Origin: Campylobacteraceae bacterium
GTDB taxonomy: Bacteria > Campylobacterota > Campylobacteria > Campylobacterales > Sulfurovaceae
Direction of reading: 5' to 3'
Assembly: GCA_027035765.1 (NCBI GenBank)
Contig: JALVUD010000015.1
Span: forward strand, 1 to 38,021
DNA length: 38,021 nucleotides
Positions 7,515 through 10,567 of this stretch are shown here, piece after piece. How positions within the stretch are numbered: the stretch's first letter is position 1; every line of letters begins with the position of its first letter. The notes below the pieces were generated by a model. The model was not told the DNA's origin. It did no database searches and saw nothing but the letters and a program-made list of their open reading frames with translations. A program made the position numbers and the translations under genes.

Positions 7515-8261
7515 CTACGGGTTGGTCAGATCGAAAAATTTGGACTTCAGCGTCGCATCCCCGATCCACGTCACCTCGGCATTGACCGTTTTGTTGTGGG
7601 AGAAGACGAAGTCGTTGCCCGAAGCCGACTGGTGGCAGGAGATACAGCCGACGGGCTTGCCTTTGGCGACTCTTCCTGCCAGTTTCATCCCTTTGGGATT
7701 GCTCATGACCGAACCGTCGGGAGCGTACTTGATCCAGAACCAATCTTTATCCTCCGGGTCATAGCCTGGGCGTTTGGCCATCACCGTCACCGACTTCAGA
7801 TATTTTTTCGGATTGGCTGCGGCCTTCTCGACCGTCACATCCTTGCCCCGGTAATTGGTCTTGACGATGACCAGATGACCGTCGATGACTCCTTCGCTCA
7901 CTTCCCGTACCTTGCCGTGCGGAGGACCGCCCACATAGAGATGACCATGGACCCGGTCATAGCCCGCTCCGTGCAGCTTGGGCCAGAGCTTTTGGGCGTA
8001 GGCAACATCCTCGGGATTGCCGAAGGGAGGTTTCATCATTCCCTTTTGCATTGCCCCTTTTTCCATCGAAGCCGAAGGTTTCATCATCCCCTGCCCCATT
8101 TTCTGCGGTGTTTTCATCGTATCGGACGGAGACATCATCCCCGATTTTGCCTTGTGCGCCTCCCCTTTCTGACCCATTCCGCAAGGATCGGCCTCCTCGG
8201 CTGCCAATGTTCCCAGACCTGTCGCGACCAATGCGATGAGTATCCATTTTGCTGTTTTCAT
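7515..8261 (-). CDS. Cytochrome P460-like protein with Met-rich N-terminal segment
   Basis: 248 residues. A signal peptide (1-20) is followed by a low-complexity stretch (about 30-80) with many Met, Lys and His (MMSPSDTMK, MGQGMMK, MEKGAMQKGMM), of the kind that binds Cu(I) in periplasmic copper proteins. The C-terminal part looks like a P460 domain and ends with the heme site CISCH (206-210), followed by NDFVFSH. P460 enzymes oxidise hydroxylamine or handle NO, but many family members are uncharacterised. It heads an operon with the cytochrome c'-like gene and has a candidate copper-box promoter. The copper role is inferred from the Met-rich segment and context. Confidence 0.78.
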   Translation of the reverse strand: MKTAKWILIALVATGLGTLAAEEADPCGMGQKGEAHKAKSGMMSPSDTMKTPQKMGQGMMKPSASMEKGAMQKGMMKPPFGNPEDVAYAQKLWPKLHGAGYDRVHGHLYVGGPPHGKVREVSEGVIDGHLVIVKTNYRGKDVTVEKAAANPKKYLKSVTVMAKRPGYDPEDKDWFWIKYAPDGSVMSNPKGMKLAGRVAKGKPVGCISCHQSASGNDFVFSHNKTVNAEVTWIGDATLKSKFFDLTNP

Positions 8262-8334: not shown

Positions 8335-8360
8335 GTCATTTGATGTCATTCATGGTCATT
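8335..8360. promoter_or_regulatory. Three direct GTCATT repeats at 10-bp spacing
   Basis: GTCATT begins at 8335, 8345 and 8355, exactly one helical turn apart, directly left of the foldback element. Inverted copies (AATGAC) occur on the other side of that element at 8656, 8680 and 8690. Such phased repeats are usual for OmpR-type or other cooperative DNA-binding proteins. No binding protein is identified. Confidence 0.4.
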
Positions 8361-8361
8361 T

Positions 8362-8634
8362 ATCACCGCACCAATCAACTGCCTCAATTTTTGAGAGAGC
8401 GAGACGCGGTGAGATGTGTGCAAAGAAATCCGAAGGACTCCCCGTAGGGAATTCGAGGGCTTTGTTTGTGCGCAGATCGCCGCGTATCGCTCTCCCCGAA
8501 GGGTGCGGCACTTTTGCCCATATGCTGCGTTGGATTTTCTTGAATTAGCCTCCGGCTAGTCCTGCAAAAATCCGCCTTGCCTATGAACAAAATTGCCGCA
8601 TCAAAAGTTTGAGGTAGTTACTTGGTGCGGTGAT
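8362..8634. repeat. Foldback element A with 33-bp terminal inverted repeats
   Basis: The 33 bp at the left end (ATCACCGCACC, then TGCCTCAA) and the right end (GAGGTAG, then GGTGCGGTGAT) are imperfect inverted repeats. Inside, 8393-8409 pairs with 8480-8492 plus flank (GAGAGCGAGACGCGG against CCGCGTATCGCTCTC). The segment 8502-8604 forms a second long imperfect hairpin (TGCGGCA-n-TTTTG against CAAAATTGCCGCA) with a perfect apex TAGCC-TCC-GGCTA. The whole can fold as a three-way junction. It contains no credible gene. It is MITE-like or an RNA element; copies elsewhere in the genome cannot be checked here. Confidence 0.65.
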
Positions 8635-8655
8635 TAGGGTGTATTTCCCTGCCCC

Positions 8656-8695
8656 AATGACTGCACGTGCAGCGCGCATAATGACCTCAAATGAC
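8656..8695. promoter_or_regulatory. Inverted AATGAC repeats with central palindrome
   Basis: AATGAC occurs at 8656, 8680 and 8690 (the last two 10 bp apart), mirroring the GTCATT array on the left side of element A. A perfect 12-bp palindrome, CTGCACGTGCAG, lies at 8661-8672. The rest of the gap to the kinase gene at 8716 shows nothing else. Confidence 0.35.
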
Positions 8696-8715
8696 AGTGA
8701 AGCGAATCACAAAAA

Positions 8716-9924
8716 TTATTCTTGATCGCCGGCACCGCCTTTTTCCCGAAGCGACCGGAAATCGAAGACGAAGCGGCTCCCCTCCCCTTTGGCCGACTCC
8801 ACCTCCAGGCCGATGCCGTGATCCCGGCAGATCTGGGCGACGATACTCAAACCGATCCCGAAGCCTCCCCGCTCCTTGTTGGCCCGTGTATAGCGCTTGA
8901 AGATCTCCCGGCGCTCGTCAGGGCTCATACCGATTCCCCGGTCCGCCACACTCAAACGGCACCGCTCCAGGGTCACGGTCACCTCCCCGCCCGGATCGCT
9001 GTATTTGATGGCATTGGAGAGGACGTTGTCGATGAGGCGGCGGAGCTCCTCCCGGTTCATCCGGATACGGCAGGGCTCCAGCCGGATATCGAAGGCGATT
9101 CGTTTGCTCTGGGCCAGCGGCTCCATGGCGTCACAGCGCTCGGCACAGATCTCGGCCAGGTCCAGCGCTTCGCTTCTGTTCTCCTCCACCTCCCGGCCCA
9201 AACCGTAGGCGAGGCTGTCGTACATGGTGCTGAGCCGCTGGGCACTGGCTTTCAATCGCCGCAGTTTTTTCTCCTCCACCCCTTTGAGCTGCCGAATCGT
9301 CATCAAAATCGCTGAAACGGGGGTGTTGAGCTCGTGGGTGGTCTCCTCGATGAAGCGGTCCAGCGCCTCGATCTTCTCCCGGATCGGGCGCATGAACAGC
9401 CGCGCCAGGAAATACCCCACCACCGACATGAAGAGAAAGGAGAGGACCAGATAGCCGATGATCTTCCATCGCAGGGCCCGGATCATCCCCTTGAGCTTGG
9501 TCTCCTGCAGCGCGATGTAGGCGACCCCCTCTTTGCCCAAGGCGCACTTGATCGTACTGTAGCAGCTCCCTTTCCCGGCGTAGAAGGGCTTCTCGAAACC
9601 GGGGATCCCGCTGATTTCGCTGTAGAGGGGACGATGATCCGCATCGTAGTAGCCGACTTTGAACCGGCGGCTCCGGATCCCTTTGAGCACGTCGATCAGA
9701 TCCTCCCGGTCCAATACCGGCTGCTGCATCAGCGCCTGGGTCAGACGCGACTCGATCCGATGGGCTTCGGAGAGCATCTCGAACTTCATGGCGCTCTTCA
9801 TCATCGCGGCGTTGTGCTCGAAAAAGAGCCAGCCGATGATCGCCAGCAGCACGAAAACCGACCCCAGATAGAGGCTCAGAAAGCGCAGCAGCGAGCGCTT
9901 CTCATACCCGGTCAGCGGCGTCAA
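8716..9924 (-). CDS. Sensor histidine kinase of the copper-block two-component system
   Basis: 402 residues. Two transmembrane helices (about 17-36 and 153-176) enclose a periplasmic sensor domain of about 115 residues that has two cysteines (SCYSTIKCALG) and several His and Met residues. The H-box has His197 in ETTHELNTP, followed by N (LIDNVLSNAIKYSD), DRGIGM and GFGIGLSI motifs. Its start overlaps the response regulator by 23 bases, so the pair is made together. Copper sensing is inferred from the neighbours and from the shared promoter box, not from the domain itself. Confidence 0.85.
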   Translation of the reverse strand: MTPLTGYEKRSLLRFLSLYLGSVFVLLAIIGWLFFEHNAAMMKSAMKFEMLSEAHRIESRLTQALMQQPVLDREDLIDVLKGIRSRRFKVGYYDADHRPLYSEISGIPGFEKPFYAGKGSCYSTIKCALGKEGVAYIALQETKLKGMIRALRWKIIGYLVLSFLFMSVVGYFLARLFMRPIREKIEALDRFIEETTHELNTPVSAILMTIRQLKGVEEKKLRRLKASAQRLSTMYDSLAYGLGREVEENRSEALDLAEICAERCDAMEPLAQSKRIAFDIRLEPCRIRMNREELRRLIDNVLSNAIKYSDPGGEVTVTLERCRLSVADRGIGMSPDERREIFKRYTRANKERGGFGIGLSIVAQICRDHGIGLEVESAKGEGSRFVFDFRSLREKGGAGDQE

Positions 9925-10567
9925 TGCGGTACCCCTCCCCTTTGACGTTTTCGATCATATCATGCCCCAGAATCTTGCGGAGATTTTTGATGTAGGTGCG
10001 GATGGTGGCATAGGCAGGAGTCTGATCCTCCTCCCAGACATTGGCGATGAGTTCGTCGAAGGAGACCACCTCCCCCCGGCGGCTGAGCAGATAGCCCAGG
10101 ATCATCGACTCCTTGGCCTTGAGCGGGATTCGCTCCCCCTCCGGCCCCAGCAGCAGATGCCGCTCCGGCTGAAAGGTATAGGGCCCGCACTCCCGGATAT
10201 CCCCTCCCCCCTGGCGCAGATGGTGCTCGATCCGTATCGCCAACTCCTCCAGGTCGAAGGGCTTTTTCAGATAATCCTCCGCCCCCAGATCGAAGCCTTT
10301 GCGCAGATTCTTCAGGTCCCCAAGGGAGGTGATGAAAATGGCCGGGGTGCGGTTGCGGATCTCCCGGAGGTACTCCAGCATCTCAAAGCCGTCGATCTCG
10401 GGGACGTTCACATCGAGCAGGAGCATGTCGTAATGCTCCTTCATCGCCGCATCCAGCGCCGACTCCCCGTCGTAGTAGCAGTCGACCCGGTAACCCCGCT
10501 CGATCAAAAACTCTTCGATGATCTCCTGGAGAATGATGTCGTCTTCGAGCAGCAGTATTCTTCGCAT
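9902..10567 (-). CDS. OmpR/PhoB-family response regulator
   Basis: 221 residues. Receiver domain with acidic pair LEDD (8-10), phospho-acceptor Asp52 (LLLDVNVPEIDG) and the conserved Lys in LKKPFD. The C-terminal winged-helix domain ends with ATIRTYIKNLRKILG, the recognition helix region, and GEGYRI. Proteins of this class bind tandem half-sites about 11 bp apart. The gene has such a tandem box in its own promoter (10600-10636) and the same box stands before five other operons here, so it is the best candidate for the shared regulator. The gene is the first of the RR-kinase operon. Confidence 0.88.
   Translation of the reverse strand: MRRILLLEDDIILQEIIEEFLIERGYRVDCYYDGESALDAAMKEHYDMLLLDVNVPEIDGFEMLEYLREIRNRTPAIFITSLGDLKNLRKGFDLGAEDYLKKPFDLEELAIRIEHHLRQGGGDIRECGPYTFQPERHLLLGPEGERIPLKAKESMILGYLLSRRGEVVSFDELIANVWEEDQTPAYATIRTYIKNLRKILGHDMIENVKGEGYRIDAADRV

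What the first reader, a model, noticed from the sequence alone, without database searches (positions are those of the whole stretch)
8335..8697. Three-armed foldback element flanked by mirrored GTCATT arrays
Seen: element A has 33-bp terminal inverted repeats and two long internal hairpins that fold into a three-way junction; mismatches are spread in a way that keeps pairing. On both sides stand GTCATT repeats at 10-bp spacing in opposite orientation (8335, 8345, 8355 against 8656, 8680, 8690). This nesting is not explained by any gene. It could be a MITE that carries binding sites for a transposase, an RNA element, or an insertion into a regulatory site between the kinase and P460 operons.
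Basis: seen in the sequence. Interest (0 to 1): 0.72.

Follow-up and report, generated by a model that had tools for sequence, protein, structure and literature searches.

The report
Mobile four-armed foldback DNA element
A 273-base non-coding piece of DNA that folds into a four-armed cross has inserted itself, with no transposase gene of its own, into a separate repeat in this bacterium; relatives of it, with almost unrelated stem sequences but the same fold, are scattered through many Campylobacterota and in one genome sit inside the ribosomal RNA genes.

Summary
Element A (8362-8634) folds far better than shuffles (z = -11.8). It has a 94% identical second copy elsewhere in this genome, without GTCATT arrays beside it. 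The GTCATT arrays are a different repeat family. The window site is empty in a congeneric genome (G008), where the GTCATT array is intact. So A inserted into an older GTCATT repeat.

A belongs to a family found in 57 of 397 phylum-mates (22 of 68 genera; named loci include Sulfurovum, Nitratifractor, Sulfurimonas, Sulfurospirillum, Hydrogenimonas). Length is nearly fixed (267-274 bp). The fold is a four-way junction: closing stem, two long arms, CCC-NNN-GGG mini-hairpin. Covariation is very strong. Across the order the closing stem is only about 37% identical between copies, yet about 97% paired.

Copies are mobile: empty sites, three identical copies at unrelated loci, insertion at T|A with no clear target duplication. 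Three identical copies lie in helix 10 of the 16S rRNA genes of one genome, the position of known Campylobacter 'intervening sequences'. No tested mobiliser (Y1, reverse transcriptase, IS110, IS630) tracks the element.

Best reading: a non-autonomous foldback element moved in trans by an unknown enzyme, probably as folded single-stranded DNA. That mechanism is inferred.

The parts
8362..8634 (+). Element A, ATCACC...GGTGAT, mobile foldback element (273 bp); the flanking T at 8361 is shared with the target
   Evidence: Second copy at C44; empty site in G008; boundaries constant in 45 copies; model match 8361-8634
8362..8394 (+). Closing stem P1, 5' strand (terminal inverted repeat)
   Evidence: 32 pairs, 95.5% of cells paired, 23 pairs with changes on both sides
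8395..8494 (+). Arm A, long hairpin; conserved tip motif GGACT...AATTC at 8435-8454
8495..8503 (+). Mini-hairpin CCC-GAA-GGG, fourth arm at the centre of the dyad
8504..8600 (+). Arm C, long hairpin; conserved tip motif GAATT...AGTCC at 8542-8562 (reverse complement of the tip of arm A)
   Evidence: also found alone on top of unrelated stems in 162-nt variants
8601..8634 (+). Closing stem P1, 3' strand (terminal inverted repeat)
8335..8360 (+). Element B (separate, older repeat), left half: three GTCATT units at 10-bp spacing
   Evidence: present in G008 without element A; family in 7 of 13 genomes of the genus
8635..8695 (-). Element B, right half: GGG...CCC hairpin, AATGAC at 8656, TGCACGTGCA hairpin at 8662-8671, AATGAC at 8680 and 8690
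7515..8261 (-). Neighbouring gene, cytochrome P460-like; its start is about 100 bp from element A (context, not part of the element)
   Evidence: PF16694, E = 7.9e-9
8716..9924 (-). Neighbouring gene, histidine kinase (context, not part of the element)
   Evidence: PF02518 and PF00512

Best explanation
Element A is a non-autonomous mobile foldback element. Shown: it and its relatives occupy sites that are empty in related genomes, insert at T|A without a clear target duplication, are too short and stop-ridden to encode a transposase, keep a nearly fixed length, and keep one four-way-junction fold while the closing stem drifts almost freely in sequence. Inferred: it is moved in trans by an unidentified enzyme that recognises the folded form (conserved hairpin tips and mini-hairpin) of single-stranded or cruciform DNA and joins the ends between T and A. 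In the window it landed inside an older GTCATT foldback repeat between the P460 gene and the histidine kinase gene. Where a copy is transcribed, as in 16S rRNA of genome G103, its long closing stem would be expected to be cut by RNase III, as is known for rRNA intervening sequences; this too is inferred.
For: Second copy and partial copies in the own genome. Copies in 18 of 60 relatives and in 57 of 397 genomes of the phylum, 22 of 68 genera. Empty sites for five insertions, including the window's own. Three identical 269-nt copies with unrelated flanks in one Sulfurovum MAG. Covariation: 96.7% of cells paired, 66 of 106 pairs with changes on both sides, against 85% when shuffled and about 40% when slid; order-wide 93.5% against 54%. 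P1 37% identical between 53 distinct elements while about 97% paired; tips 58-69%, mini-hairpin 74%. Target T|A in 84% and 73% of 108 sites. P1 mismatches show no G.T excess (36 to 30), which fits pairing kept at DNA level.
Against: No mobilising enzyme was identified. No direct evidence for single-stranded DNA or for transcription. Arm A keeps more G.T than A.C pairs (187 to 47), which would fit an RNA. A rough hand count of orientation relative to replication (from, origin assumed at position 1) showed no strong bias, which single-strand transposons such as IS200/IS605 would lead one to expect.
Confidence: 0.6

Rival explanations
1. Ordinary MITE of an IS630/Tc1-mariner-type transposon (like RUP or Correia elements): a DDE transposase acts in trans on the terminal inverted repeats and duplicates a TA target.
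For: Long terminal inverted repeats, no coding capacity, T|A at both ends in most copies.
Against: No IS630-type DDE_3 domain over the cut-off in the genus (G008 has one weak match below it). The outermost A and T are invariant (44 of 45) while the presumed duplicated T and A vary. The truD target in G008 reads as TG, not TA. Terminal repeats differ between copies of one genome, although a transposase would be expected to need them.
Confidence: 0.12
2. Derivative of a Y1 (HUH) transposon: REP/BIME or IS200/IS605-derived element moved as single-stranded DNA by a RAYT-like protein.
For: No clear target duplication, conserved hairpin tips with mismatches, solitary half elements of about 105 nt; single-copy Y1 proteins of about 256 aa in G000, G008 and G011.
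Against: G001, G004, G005 and G006 carry the element with no Y1 gene found in the assembly, and G004 is 99% complete; G002, G007 and G010 have Y1 but no element. No element, half element or comparable hairpin beside the Y1 genes examined.
Confidence: 0.15
3. Functional structured RNA (or a mobile RNA moved through reverse transcription, or an intron-like element removed from transcripts) whose fold is conserved for an RNA role.
For: Very strong covariation; G.T excess in arm A; copies in 16S rRNA; right-hand gene more often in the same orientation, 66 to 37 by rough ORF calls; three in-phase sense insertions in genes of G008.
Against: No Rfam match at the curated threshold. P1 and arm C show no G.T excess. 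Genomes with copies lack reverse transcriptase domains. The ORF screen of about 68 further copies gave no convincing disrupted gene. Window copy is antisense to both neighbours.
Confidence: 0.13

Closest known systems
rRNA intervening sequences (IVS), e.g. helix 10 of 16S rRNA in Campylobacter sputorum, curvus and helveticus (PMC12453555) and 23S IVS of Coxiella (PMC4990558)
   Same: Non-rRNA insert with complementary ends replacing a hairpin loop; the G103 copies sit at the same helix 10 position.
   Different: Here the insert is one member of a dispersed family with a conserved four-way-junction core, mostly outside rRNA. Whether the published Campylobacter IVSs belong to the family was not tested.
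Bacterial MITEs of the RUP/Correia/NEMIS kind (IS630-type)
   Same: Short, non-coding, terminal inverted repeats, dispersed copies, A+T target.
   Different: No clear TA duplication, no IS630 transposase in the genus, terminal repeats not conserved between copies, conserved internal fold.
REP/BIME and REPIN elements with RAYT (Y1) transposases; IS200/IS605-derived PATEs
   Same: Inverted pairs of hairpin units, no target duplication, hairpins with conserved mismatches.
   Different: About 272 bp, closed by a long outer stem, no GTAG tag seen, not linked to a Y1 gene.
ERIC-type intergenic palindromes
   Same: Dispersed intergenic foldback sequences of a fixed core length (from general knowledge, not compared here).
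   Different: Larger, four-armed, stem sequence free to change, different host group.

Membership tests
IS630/mariner-type MITE | TA target duplication | tested here: inconclusive
   Net insertion lengths fit either no duplication or a 2-bp one; variability of the outer T and A and a TG target favour none
IS630/mariner-type MITE | Related DDE transposase in the genome or its relatives | tested here: not met
   No DDE_3 domain above cut-off in 13 genomes of the genus
IS630/mariner-type MITE | Terminal inverted repeats conserved among copies | tested here: not met
   Outer hexamer conserved within the genus, the rest of P1 down to 52% within G008 and 37% over the order
REP/BIME or IS200/IS605-derived element | Y1 transposase present with the element | tested here: not met
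   G004 (99% complete) has copies and no PF01797 match
REP/BIME or IS200/IS605-derived element | Insertion without target duplication | tested here: inconclusive
   Favoured by the data, TA duplication not formally excluded
rRNA intervening sequence | Located in an rRNA hairpin | tested here: met
   Met for the three G103 copies, not for the window copy, which is intergenic
rRNA intervening sequence | Excised by RNase III | not testable with these tools
   Needs RNA data; known for other IVSs (PMC4990558)
Group II intron or other retroelement | Reverse transcriptase in copy-bearing genomes | tested here: not met
   none in G000, G001, G004, G005, G006, G008, G011
IS110-type element with bridge RNA | DEDD transposase in copy-bearing genomes | tested here: not met
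   none in G000, G001, G004, G005, G008, G011; one in G006
Any Rfam family | Match at the curated threshold | tested here: not met
   (window, E up to 10, only weak chance matches)

The most novel reading that the evidence does not exclude
A new class of mobile element defined by fold rather than sequence: the closing stem drifts almost freely while staying paired, so the mobilising machinery must read the folded single strand; the same class is a source of 16S rRNA intervening sequences in Campylobacterota.
Probability: 0.35. Interest if true: 0.85.

Novelty: new variant of a known kind. Interest (0 to 1): 0.72.

Why it matters
It links two things usually treated apart: dispersed mobile repeats and the intervening sequences inside rRNA genes, whose origin has been unclear. 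The covariance model built here gives a direct test (do the known Campylobacter helix-10 IVSs match it?). It also points to an unknown enzyme that must recognise a folded cross, since the stem sequence is not conserved.

Tried and rejected
GTCATT as part of the element: rejected. Intron that restores host genes: three insertions in one genome (truD, msrB-like, one unknown ORF) are in sense and in phase, but the ORF screen of about 68 further copies gave no convincing disrupted gene. Strand bias from G.T against A.C: my first count (254 to 31 in the arms) was inflated because conserved A.C mismatch columns were left out; corrected counts give an excess in arm A only. General preference for hairpin targets: not supported, folding z at junctions does not differ from the flanks (p = 0.20), although the window copy and the C44 copy both sit in inverted repeats. 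Larger autonomous version with a gene: none seen around 20 partial copies or 20 solitary ends. Replication-strand bias: rough hand count (origin assumed at position 1) showed no strong bias. Plasmids, phages and viral contigs: no matches. Mobiliser by co-occurrence with Y1, RVT_1, IS110 and IS630: no association in the genus.

Full report
Observation. The region folds as single-stranded DNA at -95.3 kcal/mol, z = -11.8 against dinucleotide shuffles. The window lies in a 2.03 Mb assembly (G000, 47 contigs). Judged by contig names and lengths, members of its genus include MAGs labelled Campylobacteraceae bacterium and Nitratifractor sp.. The neighbours are a cytochrome P460-like gene (7515-8261, minus strand) and a histidine kinase and response regulator pair (8716-10567, minus strand).

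Two separate repeats. BLAST of the region against the own genome gave a second copy, 94% identical over 8359-8634 only, at C44:86219-86496, with no GTCATT beside it. GTCATT arrays, by contrast, occur at other loci without the element. The pattern GTCATT-N4-GTCATT has 18 hits in G000 and 28 in G009, with no control hits in either, and G009 has no element A. The arrays form their own modular foldback family: GTCATT units, mostly 10 bp apart, facing inward around small hairpins. I call it element B.

Empty sites. Joined flanks of 16 insertions were searched in relatives. The window site is empty in G008, where P460, array B and kinase stand in the same order (GGTCATTC|AAGGGTG). Four other insertions also have empty counterparts, one of them in six relatives. 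Net insertion is about 273 bp. The outermost A and T of the element are each present in 44 of 45 copies, while the flanking T (40/45) and A (34/45) vary; over 108 distinct sites these are T 84% and A 73%. This favours insertion between T and A with no duplication, but a TA duplication cannot be formally excluded.

Fold and covariation. Thirty-two copies give a four-way junction with no unpaired base at the centre. 96.7% of cells pair, against 85.3% when partners are shuffled and about 40% when slid; 66 of 106 pairs show changes on both sides. A covariance model (R1) found matches in 57 of 397 genomes of the phylum, 22 of 68 genera (at most four candidates per genome were scored, so copy numbers are lower bounds). 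In an order-wide set of 102 aligned matches the paired fraction is 93.5% against 54% shuffled. That set holds most elements on both strands and was fitted to the model, so it leans towards the structure; without the second strands and duplicates 53 elements remain. Their closing stem is 37% identical on average, while tips and mini-hairpin are 58-74% identical, and lengths cluster at 267-274. Within G008, closing stems are as little as 52% identical while interiors stay 88-98% identical.

Which nucleic acid folds? A first count suggested a strong excess of G.T over A.C pairs. That was biased, because conserved A.C mismatches are not scored as pairs. With opposed mismatch columns included, only arm A keeps an excess (187 to 47); arm C and P1 together are balanced, 123 to 121 (the script's label C there includes P1). 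In the order-wide set P1 has 36 G.T and 30 A.C. A stem kept paired without extra tolerance for wobble is what one expects if pairing is maintained at DNA level, for example by copying between the arms of a hairpin. This is inference.

Mobility and variants. Three identical 269-nt copies lie at unrelated places in one Sulfurovum MAG. There are solitary half elements of about 105 nt with the same terminal hexamers and one-arm versions of about 162 nt in which a long, sometimes quite different stem carries the conserved tip of arm C. In genome G103 three identical copies sit in 16S rRNA genes, in the loop of the helix 10 hairpin (16S match of 1252 bits for the one tested, L227; the other two have the same flanks), and a fourth, different copy abuts the 3' end of a 23S rRNA gene. 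Helix 10 is where structured intervening sequences are known in Campylobacter species (PMC12453555); 23S intervening sequences are cut out by RNase III (PMC4990558). The assignment of the G103 site to helix 10 is from the flanking sequence and my knowledge of 16S rRNA.

Mobiliser. None found. Y1 transposases, reverse transcriptases, IS110 and IS630 transposases do not follow the element in the genus. Incomplete assemblies weaken the absence in G001, G005 and G006, but G004 is 99% complete.

Verdict. A real, widespread, structure-conserved mobile foldback family, here nested in another repeat. It works like a MITE or REP-type element but was not shown to be a member of either: defining features of each were tested and not met or were inconclusive. 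The link to rRNA intervening sequences is shown for one genome and proposed for others. Literature searches found no description of this family, but the library holds open-licence papers only.

Noticed in passing
window 8335-8360 and 8635-8695; L376, L391, L155, L400: GTCATT element B: a genus-level family of modular palindromes built from 10-bp GTCATT units and small hairpins; abundant in G000, G006, G008, G009 and absent from several congeners.
   Followed up: partly
L054, L052, L058 (genome G008): Copies inserted in sense inside a truD gene, an msrB-like gene and an unknown ORF; the reading frame is open and in phase on both sides, and the 273-nt insert carries stops.
   Followed up: partly
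L227-L229 and L403 (genome G103): Family copies inside three 16S rRNA genes (helix 10) and one abutting the 3' end of a 23S rRNA gene.
   Followed up: yes
L100, L107, L109, L110, L111, L117, L119, L120: Solitary half elements of about 105 nt of two types, with the same terminal hexamers as the full element and breakpoints just after the apical stem.
   Followed up: partly
L305, L282, L314, L317: One-arm versions of about 162 nt: a long near-perfect hairpin with freely varying stem and the conserved tip of arm C.
   Followed up: partly
L065 and L095: The C44 copy and its counterpart in G004 share flanks and sit inside another inverted repeat (TTTTCTTTTTTCTTTG... / ...CAAAGAAAAAAGAAA).
   Followed up: no
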